This document shows, in pieces, positions 44,550 through 55,994 of a DNA stretch of 64,000 nt. The notes below the pieces were generated by a model. It saw only the letters and a program-made list of their open reading frames with translations, was not told the DNA's origin and searched no databases. The position numbers and the translations under genes were made by a program. Source of the DNA: Hyphomonas sp. (GTDB lineage: Bacteria > Pseudomonadota > Alphaproteobacteria > Caulobacterales > Hyphomonadaceae); contig NZ_JAGYJH010000003.1 of assembly GCF_018402285.1 (NCBI RefSeq), positions 124,001 through 188,000 on the forward strand, read 5' to 3'. Every line of letters begins with the position of its first letter. Within the stretch, counting starts at the first letter, position 1.

Positions 44550-45142
44550 GTAGGTAGCACTTTCCGGATACGGAGGTAGTCAAGAAGCGGCAACAGCGGC
44601 AGGCCGAGAATGGAGAAATAGTCTCCCTCGATCCGCGTGAACAGCTGCGCGCCTGGACCCTCGAGCTGGTAGGCCCCCACAGTCGAGAGAAGCGCCTCGC
44701 CGCAAGCCGAGACATAACTGTCTATGAACTCTTCAGTCAGCGGGCGTATGGTCAGTTTCGGACGGGCGAGATGGCGCCAAACAGGCGCGCCATCCTCGCA
44801 GATGACAATCGCGGTTTCCAGCGTGTGGGATTTTCCCGATAGCTGGCGCAGATGGTTCTTTGCAGCCTCAAGGTCGGCGGGTTTGTCGAAGGCTTGGTCG
44901 CCGAGCGCGAGCATCTGGTCGCCGCCAATCACCAGGCCGGGGCGTTTGGCTGATATCCGCATGGCCTTAAGTTCAGCCAGCTGCATCGCCTGCTCACGCA
45001 CAGGCAGCTGGTTGGCACGCATGGAGTTTCGGAAGGCTTCCTCGTCCACGTTGGGCGCGGCGCTTTCCGCCACGACACCTGCAGCGGCCAAAATGGCGCG
45101 ACGGCTCTTGCTGGTGGAGGCAAGCGTAACGGCGAGGCTCAA
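44546..45142 (-). CDS. Maf-family nucleotide pyrophosphatase (YceF-like)
   Basis: A 198-residue hydrolase of non-canonical or modified nucleotides. Family pieces: LASTSKSRRAIL at the N-terminus, NVDEEAF, VIGGDQMLALGD (the YceF-type version of GADT), AYQLEGPGAQLFTRIEGDYFSILGLPLLPLL. The usual target of the YceF branch is m7GTP; not proven here. It overlaps ppsR and aroE. Confidence 0.9.
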   Translation of the reverse strand: MSLAVTLASTSKSRRAILAAAGVVAESAAPNVDEEAFRNSMRANQLPVREQAMQLAELKAMRISAKRPGLVIGGDQMLALGDQAFDKPADLEAAKNHLRQLSGKSHTLETAIVICEDGAPVWRHLARPKLTIRPLTEEFIDSYVSACGEALLSTVGAYQLEGPGAQLFTRIEGDYFSILGLPLLPLLDYLRIRKVLPT

Positions 45143-45981
45143 GAATGCCCCCAGCGCTCATGCAGCAAGTTGAGAATGCCAGCCGCAGTTTCTTCCACAG
45201 AGCGGCGCGAGACATCGATCGTCTTCCAGCCATTGCGCTGGAACAGGCGGTTGGCCTGGGTGATCTCGTCGCGAACTGCTTCCTCATCGGCGTAGTCTGT
45301 GACCTCGTCCTGGTTCAGCGAGATGAGCCGCTGGCGGCGGATCTGCACGAGTCGTTCGGCAGAAATCTTGAGGCCGACAACGAGGGGTCCCTTCTCGCCA
45401 ATCTTTTCCATGAATTCGGGAAGCGGCACACCGGGAACCAGCGGGATGTTTCCTGCCCTCACCTTGCGGTTGGCAAGATAGACGCAAGTCGGCGTTTTGG
45501 AGGTTCGGCTGACACCTAGAAGGATGACGTCCGCGCCAATCAGGCTTTCCACATTCTGGCCGTCATCATGGGCGAGGGTAAAGTTGATCGCTTCCATCCG
45601 CTCGAAATAGTCCTCGTCTAGGGCATGCTGACCGGCAACCCGGTTATTGGCCGCAACGCCCAGATGGCGGCTCAGCATGGCGATCGAGGGGTCAAGCACC
45701 GGCAGCATCGGAATACTCCGCTCACGGCAGAAGGCTTCAAGCCGGGAGCGGAGGGCTGCATCTGAAATCGTGAACCAGACAACGCCGGGAGCCGCCTCGA
45801 TCTCGCGCATCACGCGCTCGAGTTGCCGTTCGGACCGGACAAGGTAGTAATTGTGCTCAAGGGGCTGCACATTCTCGAACTGGGCACAGGCAGCGCGCTG
45901 GATGGCGTTCAGCGTCTCGCCCGTACTGTCGGAAACGAGATGCACATTGAAATAGATACTGGGGCGTTGAGGCTGGGTCAC
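45139..45981 (-). CDS. ppsR: Pyruvate, phosphate dikinase regulatory protein (DUF299, RP001 type)
   Basis: A 280-residue bifunctional kinase/pyrophosphorylase that switches PPDK or PEP synthase. The N-terminus has VHLVSDSTGETLNAI and the centre a P-loop-like GVSRTSKTPTCVYLANRK. This is the gene that sits beside the replication origin opposite hemE in Rickettsia (RP001) and Caulobacter, as I know the literature. It starts at 45981 and reads away from the putative oriC. Confidence 0.9.
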   Translation of the reverse strand: MTQPQRPSIYFNVHLVSDSTGETLNAIQRAACAQFENVQPLEHNYYLVRSERQLERVMREIEAAPGVVWFTISDAALRSRLEAFCRERSIPMLPVLDPSIAMLSRHLGVAANNRVAGQHALDEDYFERMEAINFTLAHDDGQNVESLIGADVILLGVSRTSKTPTCVYLANRKVRAGNIPLVPGVPLPEFMEKIGEKGPLVVGLKISAERLVQIRRQRLISLNQDEVTDYADEEAVRDEITQANRLFQRNGWKTIDVSRRSVEETAAGILNLLHERWGHS

Positions 45982-46021
45982 GATAGCTGTCTTGCCGGTC
46001 TGAAACCGATTTCACAAGGGG

Positions 46022-46128
46022 TGTGACTCGCTTGTGGAATTCCAAATCACACACAGGGATTCACAGGCGACTCACAATTGCAGGATTCTCACCTCGGGAG
46101 AGTCACCCTGCGTTCTCCTCTGTGACTC
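46022..46128. repeat. Repeated TGTGANTC boxes in oriC
   Basis: The 8-mer TGTGANTC occurs on the plus strand at 46022-46029 and 46121-46128 and on the minus strand at 46058-46065 and 46069-46076. One-mismatch copies lie on the minus strand at 46084-46091 and 46100-46107. Each embeds a GANTC methylation site next to a TGTG start like that of a DnaA box. Confidence 0.6.
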
Positions 46129-46150
46129 CCACACGGTCATTTATACCCTG

Positions 46151-46158
46151 TTAACCAT
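46151..46158 (+). promoter_or_regulatory. CtrA half-site TTAACCAT in oriC
   Basis: TTAACCAT matches the half-site form of the CtrA recognition motif. CtrA bound at the origin blocks initiation in Caulobacter. No TTAA follows at the standard 7-base spacing, so this is one half only. Confidence 0.45.
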
Positions 46159-46270
46159 TGACTCATTTCGGGTTTGAAACGTCATAGGGTCGCGGGTCAA
46201 TCTGTGACTTGCCTGTGGATTTGCCGGGATAACCCGTTAACAGACAGGTTATCCTCGAATCCCTCGGGGT

Positions 46271-46276
46271 TATAAT
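46271..46276 (+). promoter_or_regulatory. hemE -10 element in oriC
   Basis: A perfect TATAAT lies 48 bp before the hemE GTG. The -35 is poor, so an activator or a weak promoter is likely. The Caulobacter hemE promoter also lies within the origin. Confidence 0.45.
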
Positions 46277-46323
46277 CATAAGCGCCCTGACGGGCATTTG
46301 AGTTAGATCGGGAAGGGGGCTGC

Positions 46324-47358
46324 GTGGCAACGTCCGTTAAGAAACTGCTGGCTGTACTGTCAGGTGAGGCTGTGAAGCCGCCACCGGTGTGGATGATGCG
46401 CCAGGCTGGGCGGCATCTTCCAGAATATCTGGAGACAAGAGCGCGGGCGAAGGACTTCCTGGATTTCTGTTACACTCCCTCTCTAGCGAGCGAAGCCACC
46501 CTCCAGCCCATCCGCCGTTATGGAATGGACGGGGCCATCCTCTTTGCCGACATTCTGCTCATCCTGGACGCGATGGGTCTGAAAGTGGCTTTCGAGAAGG
46601 GTGAAGGTCCGCTGGTCGAGCAGATTGAAACCCCTCTCGATCTTGCTCGGGTTACCCCCCAGAAGGCGGCAGACCGCCTGTCACCTGTTTACGAGACAGT
46701 GTCGCGGGTGAAGGCTGCCCTGCCCCCTTCTACCGCGCTGATCGGTTTTGCCGGCTCGCCCTGGACCGTCAGTCTTTATGCGATCGAAGGCCGGGGAAAG
46801 ACCGACAAGTCCGCCGCCTGGCGCTGGGCCCATGGCCGGCCGGATGATCTGGCCGCTGTCATGGATCTGGTGATCGAGGCAACAGCCGAATACCTCGCCC
46901 GTCAGGTAGATGCCGGCGCTGACGCGCTGATGCTCTTTGACAGCTGGGCAGAGGGCTTGCCCGACAACATCTTCCGCGAGGTCGTGATCGCCCCGACGAA
47001 AAAGCTCGTGGCCCGGCTGCGGGAGATGGCGATTACGGTTCCAATCATCGGCTTCCCGCGCGGCGCAGGTGTTATGCTGCCCGAATATGTCCGCGAGACA
47101 GGCGTTACCGCTGTTGGCCTTGATACGGCCGTCTCCCCGACCTTCATCAACGGCGAACTCCCGGCAGGCTTTCCAGTGCAGGGTCATCTTGATCCCCTGC
47201 TTCTTATCGAAGGGGGTGGGCGACTTGACGCACGCGTCCGCCAATTGCTGGACGCATACAACGGTCGCCCCCATATCTTCAATCTCGGTCATGGAGTTCG
47301 CCCCGAAACCCCCATCGCGCATGTCGAACGTGTGCTCGACCTGATCAGAAACGAATAG
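46324..47358 (+). CDS. hemE: Uroporphyrinogen decarboxylase
   Basis: Decarboxylates uroporphyrinogen III to coproporphyrinogen in heme synthesis. The 344-residue protein starts at a GTG with GGAAGGGGG upstream and has the signature PVWMMRQAGRHLPEY (residues 21-35), FADILL, FAGSPWT and the C-terminal FNLGHGV. It opens the hemE-hemH-hemJ-rho series to the right of the origin. Confidence 0.96.
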   Translation: MATSVKKLLAVLSGEAVKPPPVWMMRQAGRHLPEYLETRARAKDFLDFCYTPSLASEATLQPIRRYGMDGAILFADILLILDAMGLKVAFEKGEGPLVEQIETPLDLARVTPQKAADRLSPVYETVSRVKAALPPSTALIGFAGSPWTVSLYAIEGRGKTDKSAAWRWAHGRPDDLAAVMDLVIEATAEYLARQVDAGADALMLFDSWAEGLPDNIFREVVIAPTKKLVARLREMAITVPIIGFPRGAGVMLPEYVRETGVTAVGLDTAVSPTFINGELPAGFPVQGHLDPLLLIEGGGRLDARVRQLLDAYNGRPHIFNLGHGVRPETPIAHVERVLDLIRNE

Positions 47359-53606: not shown

Positions 53607-54230
53607 ATGACAGGGCAAGACGACCGCGCGGCCTTCCTGGCCGCCAACGATGTTTCACGTGAAACATTGGACCGCCTCGGCCAGGTGATCGCCACACTCG
53701 ATGTCTGGCGCCAGAAGAGCAATCTCATTGGTCCGAAAGAATGGCCGCAGATTTGGACCCGGCATGTCGGCGACTCATGGCAGCTTCTCGATCATATTGC
53801 TCAAACCGCCCGCGTCGTTGATCTCGGATCCGGCGCCGGCTTTCCAGGACTCATCATCGCTGCGGCGCGCCCATCGGGTCACGTGACCATGGTCGAAAGC
53901 GTTGGAAAGAAGTGCGCCTTCCTGCGCGCGGCCATAGACGCTGCCGGTCTGCCCGCATCCGTGCATCAGGGCCGCGTCGAAGCAGCGCCACTGATTTCTG
54001 CGGAATTCGTCACGGCGCGCGCATTTGCGCCCATGCCGGAACTCCTTGATTATGCTGCGCCCTGGCTTCGGAAAGGTGCGGTTGGCGTCTTCCCGAAAGG
54101 CGAACGCTGGAAAGAGGAATTGACTGCGGCTAGGCAAAGATGGAATTTCGCTTATGAAGCGATTCAAAGTCGCTCTGGTGGGTCAGGCGTCATCTTGATT
54201 GTCAGGGAGGTGTCTCGTCGTCATGACTAG
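53607..54230 (+). CDS. rsmG: 16S rRNA (guanine-527 N7)-methyltransferase
   Basis: A 207-residue class I methyltransferase (GidB). It shows VVDLGSGAGFPGLIIAAARP for SAM binding, VESVGKKCAFLRAAIDAAGLP, and SAEFVTARAFAPMPELLDYA. parS site 2 lies near its start. The stop overlaps the parA start by 8 bp. The cognate partner gene mnmG is 3 bp upstream. Confidence 0.95.
   Translation: MTGQDDRAAFLAANDVSRETLDRLGQVIATLDVWRQKSNLIGPKEWPQIWTRHVGDSWQLLDHIAQTARVVDLGSGAGFPGLIIAAARPSGHVTMVESVGKKCAFLRAAIDAAGLPASVHQGRVEAAPLISAEFVTARAFAPMPELLDYAAPWLRKGAVGVFPKGERWKEELTAARQRWNFAYEAIQSRSGGSGVILIVREVSRRHD
53650..53667. promoter_or_regulatory. parS: parS site 2 (inside rsmG)
   Basis: Second copy of the same 18-bp palindrome ATGTTTCACGTGAAACAT, 523 bp from the first, coding DVSRET near the rsmG N-terminus. 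Confidence 0.95.
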
Positions 54231-55029
54231 GCCCAGAATTTTTGCCGTGGTGAACCAAAAGGGTGGGGTCGGAAAGACCACGACCTCGATCAACCTCGGA
54301 ACAGCCCTCGCCGCCGTCGGCCGCCGCGTTCTCATCGTCGACTTCGACGCTCAGGGAAACGCGTCCACCGGCCTTGGCATTTCACGTGCCGACCGTCTCA
54401 TGACCTCCTACGATCTGGTCGTGGACCGGGTGGCGCTCGAAGAGGCGGTGCTGTCCACCATCGTTCCGCGCCTCGACATCGTGCCGGGCGATGAAAACCT
54501 GTCAGGCGTCGAAACCGAGCTCGCTGGGGATGCCCACCGGTCCTACCGGCTCAAGGAAGCACTTCATTCCTACATCGACCGGGTCGAGCAGGGCGGACTC
54601 GTCAAGTATGACTATGTCCTGATCGATTGCCCGCCATCCTTGTCGGCTTTGACGCTCAACGCAATGACGGCAGCTGACGCTTTGCTTGTACCGCTGCAGT
54701 GCGAGTTCCTTGCCCTCGAGGGTCTCTCTCAGCTTTTGCGCACTGTTGAAGTCGTCCGCTCCGGTCTCAACCCGACGCTCGAGATCCAGGGCGTCGTTCT
54801 CACTATGTATGACCGCCGCAACAGCCTCTCCGATCAGGTCGCCAATGAAGTGCGCGCCTTCTTCGGAACAAAGGTCTACAACACCGTCATTCCGCGCAAT
54901 GTCCGCCTATCCGAGGCGCCGTCCTTCGGCAAGCCGGCGCTCCTCTATGATTACCGTTGCCCGGGCAGCGAAGCCTATATCCGCCTCGCCTCCGAAGTCC
55001 TGCAGCGGGAGAAGGCGAGGGCGGCATGA
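54223..55029 (+). CDS. parA: Chromosome partitioning ATPase ParA
   Basis: A 268-residue deviant Walker ATPase that moves ParB-parS complexes from the old to the new pole. Walker A is KGGVGKTT (residues 13-20), the second lysine-bearing loop is VDFDAQGNAS, and DCPPSLSALT follows. The start is the ATG at 54223; it overlaps rsmG. The parB start overlaps its stop (ATGA). Confidence 0.96.
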   Translation: MTRPRIFAVVNQKGGVGKTTTSINLGTALAAVGRRVLIVDFDAQGNASTGLGISRADRLMTSYDLVVDRVALEEAVLSTIVPRLDIVPGDENLSGVETELAGDAHRSYRLKEALHSYIDRVEQGGLVKYDYVLIDCPPSLSALTLNAMTAADALLVPLQCEFLALEGLSQLLRTVEVVRSGLNPTLEIQGVVLTMYDRRNSLSDQVANEVRAFFGTKVYNTVIPRNVRLSEAPSFGKPALLYDYRCPGSEAYIRLASEVLQREKARAA

Positions 55030-55994
55030 GTGATCCGGCAGAAGACAATCGTGGGCGCCCCAGCCGCCTAGGCCGGGGGCTCTCTGCGCTCATCGGTGAA
55101 GTCGAGGCGATGAATGTCCGCCCGGCTGCGCAGCCTGCAGCCCAGGTCGAGGCAGGCGCCGCTGCGCCACCGGCCGCACCAGGCCAGGGGACGAGCGAGA
55201 TCGCGCTCGACCTGATCCGCCGCAATCCGGCCCAGCCGCGGCGCACCTTCACCGAGGAAAACCTGCGCGAGCTTGCCGACTCGCTCAAAGCAAAGGGCGT
55301 CCTTCAGGCGATCCTTGTCCGTCCCGATCCAAAGGAAGAGGGCAAGTACCAGATCATCGCGGGGGAACGCCGCTGGCGCGCGGCTCGTATGGCAGGGCTC
55401 TCGTCCATTCCGGCGGTTGTCCGCAACGTCGATGAGCTCGAACTCCTGGAGATCGGCATCATCGAGAACGTCCAGCGCTCCGATCTCAACCCGATCGAGG
55501 AGGCCGAGGCCTATGACGCGCTGATGAAGCGTTTCGGCCGGACCCAGGAAAGCCTCGCTTCCAGCGTCGGCAAGAGCCGCGCCCATATTACAAACACGCT
55601 CCGCCTGCTCCAGCTTCCGGAGAGCGCGCGCACTCATGTCCGCGAAGGCCGGATCAGTGCCGGCCACGCCCGGGCCGCGCTGGGCGCTCCCGATCCAGAA
55701 GCCCTCATCGAGCTGGCAGTGGATAAGGGTCTCAGCGTCCGCGAGGTTGAGGCCCGTGCCCGCGACGCGCGCAGCAACGCGCCGATCGAAACGAAGTCGA
55801 TGGACAGCTTTGTCCCGCCAGTGAAGGACATCAACACCGAAGCGCTCGAGGCCGACATCAGCCGCACGCTCGGGCTGGATGTTGATATCCGTCATGGACG
55901 GAACGGCGGCGAGATCCGGATCAAGTACCGCGACCTCGAACAGCTCGACGAAGTTTGCCGCCGCCTGACCGCTAAGCGCCGTACGGCGGAGTAG
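55026..55994 (+). CDS. parB: Chromosome partitioning protein ParB
   Basis: A 322-residue CTPase clamp that loads at parS and spreads. N-terminal SRLGRGLSALIGE (ParA-contacting), then AGERRWRAARMAG box, ENVQRSDLNPIEEAEAYDALM, the helix-turn-helix TQESLASSVGKSRAHITNTLRLLQLP, and a C-terminal dimer domain. Its own binding sites lie 1.4 and 1.9 kb upstream. Confidence 0.96.
   Translation: MSDPAEDNRGRPSRLGRGLSALIGEVEAMNVRPAAQPAAQVEAGAAAPPAAPGQGTSEIALDLIRRNPAQPRRTFTEENLRELADSLKAKGVLQAILVRPDPKEEGKYQIIAGERRWRAARMAGLSSIPAVVRNVDELELLEIGIIENVQRSDLNPIEEAEAYDALMKRFGRTQESLASSVGKSRAHITNTLRLLQLPESARTHVREGRISAGHARAALGAPDPEALIELAVDKGLSVREVEARARDARSNAPIETKSMDSFVPPVKDINTEALEADISRTLGLDVDIRHGRNGGEIRIKYRDLEQLDEVCRRLTAKRRTAE

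What the first reader, a model, noticed from the sequence alone, without database searches (positions are those of the whole stretch)
46022..46128. TGTGANTC repeats: DnaA-like boxes that each contain a GANTC methylation site
Four exact copies of TGTGANTC (two on each strand) and two one-mismatch copies lie within 107 bp of the origin candidate. Each joins a TGTG start like that of a DnaA box to a CcrM-type GANTC site. A box whose methylation changes as the fork passes could couple initiator binding directly to the methylation clock. Seen: the repeats. Inferred: the function.
Basis: partly seen in the sequence, partly recalled or inferred. Interest (0 to 1): 0.75.

Follow-up and report, generated by a model that had tools for sequence, protein, structure and literature searches.

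The report
Methylatable DnaA-like boxes in Hyphomonas origin
The place where this bacterium starts copying its chromosome carries short sites that look like landing sites for the starter protein fused to a DNA-methylation mark, and the fusion is preserved across the genus, which suggests that methylation helps decide when copying may start again.

Summary
Four TGTGANTC copies lie in 107 bp (46022-46128), out of 29 in the 3.04 Mb assembly. They sit in a 342-bp Caulobacter-type origin between a Kinase-PPPase gene and hemE in Hyphomonas. In 39 Hyphomonas origins (median pairwise identity 0.59) the 8-mer stands at fixed places: 39/39, 38/39, 37/39 and 33/39; a fifth place has it in 15/39. At the four main places TGTG never changes and A, T and C rarely do, but N changes as freely as background. 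That is the signature of a CcrM target built into a box. Partner boxes (mostly TGTGGA) lie 11 bp away and show a different pattern. In Caulobacteraceae an aligned TGTG box does not keep the GANTC. CcrM and GcrA are encoded; the origin is GANTC-rich (23/kb against 1.9/kb in flanks). Best reading: weak DnaA boxes selected to be methylatable, so that DnaA assembly reads the replication-methylation clock. DnaA binding, methylation in vivo and any effect of it are untested, and CcrM is dispensable for initiation control in C. crescentus. Analogues: E. coli low-affinity sites overlapping GATC, Vibrio RctB 12-mers. New variant of a known kind.

The parts
45982..46323 (.). chromosome replication origin (oriC), divergent intergenic region between a Kinase-PPPase gene and hemE
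   Evidence: Pfam names of both neighbours; length 335-353 bp in most family members read; cumulative GC skew of the window peaks here; origin of H. neptunium mapped close to hemE by marker frequency (PMC6650430 section 6)
46022..46029 (+). S1: TGTGACTC, methylatable box
   Evidence: TGTGANTC in 33 of 39 Hyphomonas origins
46033..46040 (+). S1b: TGTGGAAT, ordinary DnaA-like partner box 11 bp from S1
   Evidence: TGTG 39/39, sixth base A in 39/39; TGTGGATAA in two Hyphomonas and in three of the Henriciella rows shown
46058..46065 (-). S2: TGTGAATC, methylatable box
   Evidence: 39 of 39, N = A, C, G or T
46069..46076 (-). S3: TGTGAGTC here; methylatable in 15 of 39, TGTGG-type in 22 of the other 24; 11 bp from S2
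   Evidence: three state changes on the tree, TGTG 39/39
46121..46128 (+). S4: TGTGACTC, methylatable box without an 11-bp partner
   Evidence: 38 of 39, N = C, T or G
46203..46210 (+). S5: TGTGACTT here; TGTGANTC in most relatives
   Evidence: 37 of 39; this genome and L006 read TGTGACTT
46214..46221 (+). S5b: TGTGGATT, ordinary DnaA-like partner box 11 bp from S5
   Evidence: TGTGGA in 39 of 39
46140..46154 (.). CtrA-type site TTTA-N7-TTAA
   Evidence: TTAA-N7-TTAA in 22 and TTTA-N7-TTAA in 17 of 39; consensus from PMC4285127 Table 2 passage
46084..46104 (.). further GANTC sites without TGTG (46084, 46100)
   Evidence: GANTC at these two alignment places in 28 of 39 each
45139..45981 (-). 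Kinase-PPPase (PF03618) gene flanking the origin
   Evidence: E 4.2e-88
46324..47358 (+). hemE, uroporphyrinogen decarboxylase
   Evidence: PF01208 E 1.8e-106
54199..55994 (+). parA and parB, about 8 kb from the origin

Best explanation
The 342-bp stretch is oriC. TGTGANTC is a composite site: TGTG (CACA) is the core of a weak DnaA box and GANTC is a CcrM methylation target, and selection keeps both. In three places such a box is paired 11 bp away, on the same strand, with another TGTG box: an ordinary TGTGGA-type box beside S1 and S5, and at S2 either an ordinary or a second methylatable box. A fourth stands alone. Mechanism proposed: before S phase the boxes are fully methylated and DnaA can extend from the ordinary boxes onto them; passage of the fork makes them hemimethylated, weakening DnaA assembly at the new origins until CcrM is made late in the cycle; so the boxes themselves encode a refractory period. 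Shown here: place, conservation pattern, CcrM, GcrA and DnaA genes, spacing. Inferred: that DnaA binds them, that they are methylated, that methylation alters binding, the direction of the effect, and that CcrM is cell-cycle-timed in Hyphomonas as in Caulobacter.
For: Conservation at fixed places in Hyphomonas, also after collapsing similar origins to 27, 11 and 6 groups. Parsimony changes for T,G,T,G,A,N,T,C: S2 0,0,0,0,0,5,0,0; S4 0,0,0,0,0,5,0,1; S5 0,0,0,0,0,3,0,2; S1 0,0,0,0,1,5,2,2; 237 background columns average 3.6. For S1, S2, S4 and S5, 18 of 26 changes fall in the 4 N columns of 32, P 3e-11. A scan of every 5-bp frame found only four with outer bases at most 2 changes and centre at least 3: the GANTC of S2, S4 and S5, plus one in S5b. 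Partner boxes differ: sixth base A in 39/39 at S1b and at S5b. Same-strand TGTG spacing peaks at 11 bp in Hyphomonas (117 pairs) and in the other 57 family origins (56 pairs; mean 0.65 in 20 mononucleotide shuffles of those 57). S3 switches between the two box types with TGTG constant. CcrM orthologue E 6e-162 to 6PBD. Origin GANTC 23.2/kb against 1.87/kb in flanks, n = 39; GANTC is under-represented in the own-genome sample. In C. crescentus CcrM over-expression was reported to give extra chromosomes (PMC3973325 section 15).
Against: I found no binding or methylation data for this genus. In C. crescentus loss of CcrM left initiation control normal by flow cytometry (PMC3973325 section 15), and the same paper offers lower popZ expression as a possible cause of the extra chromosomes (passage). 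Its family mostly lacks these boxes, so that result may not transfer, but it is the nearest experiment. TGTGANTC departs from the classical box TGTGNATAA at the eighth base always and at the sixth whenever N is not A. S5 is changed in the window's own genome, S1 is absent in 6 of 39 and S3 is not methylatable in 24 of 39; only S2 is present in all 39. S3 does not show the fixed-A,T,C pattern (0,0,0,0,5,3,2,5). A looser ranking of the 5-bp frames (centre minus mean of the rest) puts S2 sixth and S4 eighth, behind frames that are not GANTC. At the place of S1 not every genus has a TGTG box: g10 rows read TGGGAG. The fused box is rare outside Hyphomonas.
Confidence: 0.52

Rival explanations
1. 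Reader-mediated sequestration: DnaA itself is indifferent to methylation, but a protein that binds hemi- or fully methylated GANTC (GcrA or an unknown SeqA-like factor) sits on the boxes and excludes DnaA for part of the cycle.
For: A GcrA gene is present (E 5.8e-47), and GcrA binding depends on GANTC methylation in C. crescentus (PMC3667746 passages). Further GANTC without TGTG are also frequent in the origin, 28, 33 and 28 of 39 at three places, and origin GANTC is dense in Henriciella (14.6/kb, n = 29) and genus g10 (25.3/kb, n = 10), which suits a reader that counts GANTC. E. coli SeqA works this way at low-affinity DnaA sites (PMC4285127 passages).
Against: A reader needs only GANTC near the boxes; it does not explain why GANTC is fused to TGTG in fixed register. 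The passages seen here name no such reader at an alphaproteobacterial chromosome origin; no search aimed at one was made beyond.
Confidence: 0.25
2. Pure sequence preference: TGTGANTC is simply a second class of weak DnaA box in Hyphomonas, like the weak boxes of Caulobacter, and methylation has no role.
For: A free N is compatible with any protein that skips one base. The DnaA residue aligned with E. coli R399 is lysine in the 30 Hyphomonas rows (numbering partly recalled), so box specificity may differ. CcrM is dispensable for initiation control in C. crescentus.
Against: The sixth base of the partner boxes in the same origins is A in 39/39 at S1b and at S5b. Henriciella shares the lysine but mostly not the box. 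GANTC without TGTG is also frequent in the origin while GANTC is scarce in the genome sample. In rows mostly of Caulobacteraceae an aligned TGTG box varies between TGTGGA, TGTGARTT and TGTGARTC.
Confidence: 0.14
3. Transcription: the GANTC sites belong to CcrM/GcrA-controlled promoters of hemE, the Kinase-PPPase gene or an origin RNA, and the TGTG overlap is secondary.
For: The region is a divergent promoter region; CcrM and GcrA act on promoters (PMC3667746 passages); the C. crescentus origin carries an ncRNA gene (PMC8959179 passages).
Against: No sigma-70-type promoter match was found (a weak test). The boxes keep TGTG in 39/39 at five places and pair at 11 bp on both strands, which promoter control does not explain.
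Confidence: 0.07
4. Chance overlap of TGTG and GANTC in an AT-richer intergenic stretch.
For: Four copies in 64 kb equals the shuffled expectation.
Against: Clustering P 8e-8 genome-wide and fixed-place conservation over origins with a median identity of 0.59.
Confidence: 0.01

Closest known systems
E. coli oriC low-affinity DnaA sites R5, I2, I3, tau overlapping Dam GATC sites, with SeqA sequestration
   Same: Weak initiator sites physically overlap an adenine-methylation site at the origin; newly replicated origins are hemimethylated (PMC4285127 passages)
   Different: GANTC/CcrM instead of GATC/Dam; no SeqA-like factor identified here (SeqA not searched); one 8-mer repeated in fixed places across a genus; in the Caulobacter model CcrM acts only late in the cycle, so origin sites stay hemimethylated long (PMC3708114 passage)
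Vibrio cholerae chromosome II 11- and 12-mers bound by RctB
   Same: Each initiator-binding repeat contains a methylation site; RctB binds well when it is fully methylated and much less otherwise (PMC2865523 passages)
   Different: Initiator would be DnaA, origin is the main chromosome's, methylase CcrM
Caulobacter crescentus Cori with G-boxes and W-boxes
   Same: Place beside hemE, CtrA sites, weak DnaA boxes (PMC4468827, PMC4285127 and PMC8959179 passages); several GANTC reported in Cori (PMC3973325 section 15)
   Different: The loci of, or near, Caulobacteraceae read here (L155-L193) hold 0 or 1 TGTGANTC and do not keep the GANTC at the aligned box
repABC replicon origins rich in GANTC
   Same: Alphaproteobacterial origin rich in CcrM sites (PMC6090056 passages)
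   Different: RepC binding was reported independent of methylation; sites not described there as part of the initiator box

Membership tests
Caulobacter-type oriC | lies beside hemE, near parAB | tested here: met
Caulobacter-type oriC | replication starts there | not testable with these tools
   measured by others in H. neptunium: maximum close to hemE (PMC6650430 section 6); GC skew of the window agrees
Caulobacter-type oriC | CtrA site TTAA-N7-TTAA | tested here: inconclusive
   exact in 22 of 39 Hyphomonas at one place; the window is one of 17 with TTTA-N7-TTAA
Caulobacter-type oriC | G-box TGATCCACA | tested here: not met
   the only TGTGGAT in the region reads TGTGGATTT
DnaA box | classical 9-mer TTATNCACA | tested here: not met
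   eighth base of TGTGANTC is always wrong and the sixth is free; perfect TTATCCACA in 2 of 39 Hyphomonas origins
DnaA box | CACA/TGTG core, oriented, regularly spaced | tested here: met
   TGTG invariant at seven boxes; 11-bp spacing
DnaA box | bound by DnaA | not testable with these tools
   no footprint or ChIP data; DnaA gene with RDHTTV motif present
CcrM target site | GANTC with free N | tested here: met
   N changes 5, 5, 5 and 3 times at S1, S2, S4 and S5
CcrM target site | CcrM encoded in the genome | tested here: met
   360 aa, E 6e-162 to CcrMI 6PBD, RAMA domain
CcrM target site | adenines methylated in vivo | not testable with these tools
   needs SMRT or nanopore data
SeqA/Dam sequestration system | SeqA present | not tested
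   seqA homologues reported only from a subset of Gram-negative bacteria with Dam (PMC4285127 passages); not searched here
RctB-type methylation-dependent initiator site | initiator is RctB | not tested
   no RctB search made; the candidate initiator is DnaA

The most novel reading that the evidence does not exclude
In Hyphomonas DnaA itself reads the methylation state of its boxes: fully methylated TGTGANTC is bound, hemimethylated is not, so the origin carries its own refractory timer without any SeqA-like protein, a direct CcrM-DnaA licensing switch evolved in one dimorphic genus by turning ordinary DnaA boxes into methylatable ones.
Probability: 0.33. Interest if true: 0.85.

Novelty: new variant of a known kind. 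Interest (0 to 1): 0.68.

Why it matters
Whether CcrM methylation acts directly on chromosome initiation in alphaproteobacteria is unsettled in the papers seen: an introduction of 2010 says that initiation in C. crescentus requires methylated GANTC (PMC2865523 passage), over-expression was reported to give extra chromosomes, yet deletion left initiation control normal (PMC3973325 section 15). Hyphomonas offers a natural origin in which the methylation site is part of the presumed initiator box, in a genus where H. neptunium has been worked on in the laboratory. It may also help explain why DnaA-site searches did not find the H. neptunium origin (PMC6650430 section 6). If true it would be a further, independent evolution of methylation-gated initiation beside Dam/SeqA and Dam/RctB.

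Tried and rejected
Chance overlap: rejected by clustering and conservation. A CRP/FNR-like reading of TGTGA was considered from recall and dropped because the TGTGA-N6-TCACA spacing was not seen by eye; no scan was made. Genus-specific change of DnaA specificity as sole cause: lysine at the place aligned with E. coli R399 occurs in Hyphomonas and in Henriciella, which mostly lacks the box, so it does not explain the box; the place was worked out from the equal-length range to 1j1v and a recalled residue numbering, that alignment itself not being printed. A methylatable dnaA promoter as the real target: one GANTC and no TGTGANTC in 400 bp upstream. A structured RNA at 46255-46330: fold no better than shuffles, z -0.14. 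TGTGANTC as a kept feature of Caulobacteraceae origins: 9 TGTGARTC, 7 TGTGARTT, 11 TGTGGA and 10 other states among 37 rows, mostly of that family. The free-N pattern does not hold for every origin GANTC: at alignment position 109 all 33 copies (of 39 origins) read GACTC, so some origin GANTC have another constraint.

Rows dropped: of 42 Hyphomonas genomes 39 are in the alignment. G042 (hemE outside the locus; five of five boxes intact when its two contig ends were read), G071 (contig ends; not scored) and G066 (L026, origin region 757 bp long; TGTGANTC at four places) were left out. Of 103 family genomes with the Kinase-PPPase gene 99 were read; G090, G099, G101 and G102 were not fetched. Of the 249 genomes of the order search 33 outside the family were read. 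The 60 loci of other families include at least five origins held twice under two locus ids. The 20 own-genome stretches are no random sample: 18 were chosen because they hold a TGTGANTC; this hardly matters for GANTC density but the TGTGANTC counts of that sample are not used.

Full report
What is there. They sit in a 342-bp stretch between a Kinase-PPPase gene (45139-45981, minus strand) and hemE (46324-47358, plus strand). parA and parB follow about 8 kb downstream, and the cumulative GC skew of the window turns here. The nearest named relatives of the window are mostly Hyphomonas records. In H. neptunium the origin was mapped by marker frequency close to hemE, after GC skew and DnaA-site searches had given no clear result (PMC6650430 section 6). 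So this is almost certainly the chromosome origin.

More than chance. The window as a whole holds no more TGTGANTC than shuffles (4 against 4.81), but the whole assembly holds only 29, against 67 for the reversed pattern, and four in one 107-bp stretch has a Poisson chance of 2.5e-14, or 8e-8 after scanning 3.04 million places. Eight of the window's 92 GANTC are in the 342 bp. In a sample of the own genome (462 kb with the window; 18 of its 20 other stretches were picked for holding a TGTGANTC) GANTC is under-represented, 620 found against 1105-2145 expected from Markov models of order 3 to 1, and no 342-bp stretch of the 398-kb part outside the window holds more than six.

Conservation test. 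The Kinase-PPPase gene was found in 103 of 105 genomes of the family; 99 were read and 97 gave the whole stretch up to hemE. Ninety-six were used: 39 of the window's genus and 57 of nine other genera (dropped rows under Tried and rejected). In the 39 Hyphomonas origins TGTGANTC is present at S1 33/39, S2 39/39, S3 15/39, S4 38/39 and S5 37/39; the window itself has TGTGACTT at S5. A fortieth genome, read at its two contig ends, has all five. The origins are far apart (median pairwise identity 0.59, minimum 0.52), and the pattern holds when they are collapsed to 27, 11 or 6 groups.

Which bases are held. On a tree of the two flanking genes, parsimony changes for T,G,T,G,A,N,T,C are 0,0,0,0,0,5,0,0 at S2; 0,0,0,0,0,5,0,1 at S4; 0,0,0,0,0,3,0,2 at S5; 0,0,0,0,1,5,2,2 at S1; and 0,0,0,0,5,3,2,5 at S3, against a mean of 3.6 for 237 background columns. 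At S2 the N is T, C, G and A in 14, 7, 9 and 9 species on the plus strand. For S1, S2, S4 and S5, 18 of 26 changes fall in the 4 N columns of 32 (P 3e-11; the sites were chosen from the window, the changes come from the other species). A scan of every 5-bp frame returned four with outer bases at most 2 changes and centre at least 3: the GANTC of S2, S4 and S5, plus one in S5b; a looser ranking puts S2 sixth and S4 eighth behind frames that are not GANTC. This is what a CcrM site under selection should look like. Against a simple story, the GANTC at alignment position 109 has its N fixed as C in all 33 species that carry it, so not every origin GANTC is only a methylation mark.

Why DnaA. TGTG never changes at S1-S5 or at the partner boxes S1b and S5b. 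The partners lie 11 bp away on the same strand and mostly read TGTGGA followed by A or T; their sixth base is A in 39/39, unlike the methylatable boxes. Same-strand TGTG pairs at 11 bp dominate in Hyphomonas (117) and in the 57 other family origins (56; 0.65 on average in 20 mononucleotide shuffles). Eleven bp is a 9-bp box plus 2, the spacing that I recall for E. coli low-affinity arrays; no call gave that number, though oppositely oriented arrays are described in PMC4285127 (passages). At the alignment place of S1 several other genera have TGTGGATGG, TGTGGATAG and the like, and at S1b some have TGTGGATAA, the full classical box; but g10 rows read TGGGAG at S1, and g2 and g7 rows include TGTGTATAG. 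S3 changes between the methylatable and the ordinary type at least three times on the tree with TGTG kept. The DnaA of this genome keeps the RDHTTV motif. DnaA binding itself was not shown.

Why methylation. The genome encodes CcrM (360 aa, E 6e-162 to 6PBD) and GcrA. Origin GANTC density is 23.2/kb against 1.87/kb in flanks in Hyphomonas (39), 14.6 in Henriciella (29), 25.3 in genus g10 (10), 5.0 in Ponticaulis (7), and 5.8 in 60 loci of other families. The fused box is much narrower: 8 of 57 other family origins have any, one has two. In rows mostly of Caulobacteraceae an aligned TGTG box reads TGTGARTC in 9, TGTGARTT in 7, TGTGGA in 11 and otherwise in 10 of 37, some rows being the same origin held twice, so there the GANTC is not kept.

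Mechanism. In C. crescentus origin-near GANTC are hemimethylated in about 80% of cells of a mixed culture (PMC3973325 passages). If Hyphomonas is alike, the methylatable boxes would be hemimethylated for most of S phase. The simplest use is a refractory period: DnaA assembles on fully methylated boxes and poorly on hemimethylated ones, as RctB does on its 12-mers (PMC2865523 passages), or a reader excludes DnaA as SeqA does at R5, I2, I3 and tau (PMC4285127 passages). I put the direct form first because the mark is fused to the box in fixed register. The nearest experiment speaks against a general role: C. crescentus without CcrM controls initiation normally (PMC3973325 section 15); but the loci of its family read here mostly lack the fused box.

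Known or new. Searches for GANTC, oriC, CcrM and DnaA (12 papers), Caulobacter, replication origin, DnaA, GANTC and hemE (1), DnaA box, GANTC and Hyphomonas (0), Hyphomonas with CcrM (5), Hyphomonas with oriC and DnaA (5), DnaA box with GANTC and related terms (98 papers, 15 listed) and hemimethylated, DnaA binding and GANTC (5) showed no paper that, from its listing or the passages seen, describes this box. I read no paper whole: two single sections, otherwise passages. The library lacks most subscription journals; Shaheen 2009 and Taylor 2011, cited in these papers as the comparative and DnaA-site studies of Caulobacter origins, were not read. The kind (an initiator site containing a methylation site) is known; this is a new variant.

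Noticed in passing
window 46084-46094 (only the first member is present in the window) and the matching alignment place in other Hyphomonas: Tandem GANTC pair about 6 bp apart (GAATCNGACTC type) without TGTG, its members in 28 and 33 of 39 Hyphomonas; the second always reads GACTC. A pair 5-6 bp apart somewhere in the origin: 24/39 Hyphomonas, 14/29 Henriciella, 8/10 g10.
   Followed up: partly
L084, L087, L088, L092, L093, L095, L098, L099: Genus g10 of the same family has 9-13 GANTC in 370-409 bp of origin in 8 of 10 species read but at most one TGTGANTC: a different GANTC-rich origin design.
   Followed up: partly
window 46140-46154: CtrA-type site, TTAA or TTTA, N7, TTAA, in 39 of 39 Hyphomonas origins at one place, 11 bp after S4.
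   Followed up: yes
L242-L291: DnaA residue aligned with E. coli R399 is lysine in the 30 Hyphomonas and 7 clear Henriciella rows and arginine in Ponticaulis and Hirschia-group rows (numbering partly recalled).
   Followed up: partly
L200, intergenic positions 259-269: Palindromic double box TGTGATTCACA in an origin of another family.
   Followed up: no
L026: One Hyphomonas MAG has about 410 extra bases inside the origin between S4 and S5; could be an insertion or a misassembly.
   Followed up: no
window 46278-46295: Strongly conserved ATAAGCGCCCTGACGGGC block before hemE, terminator-like on the minus strand.
   Followed up: no
own-genome stretches L203-L222 and the window: GANTC is 1.8 to 3.5 times rarer than Markov expectation.
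   Followed up: partly
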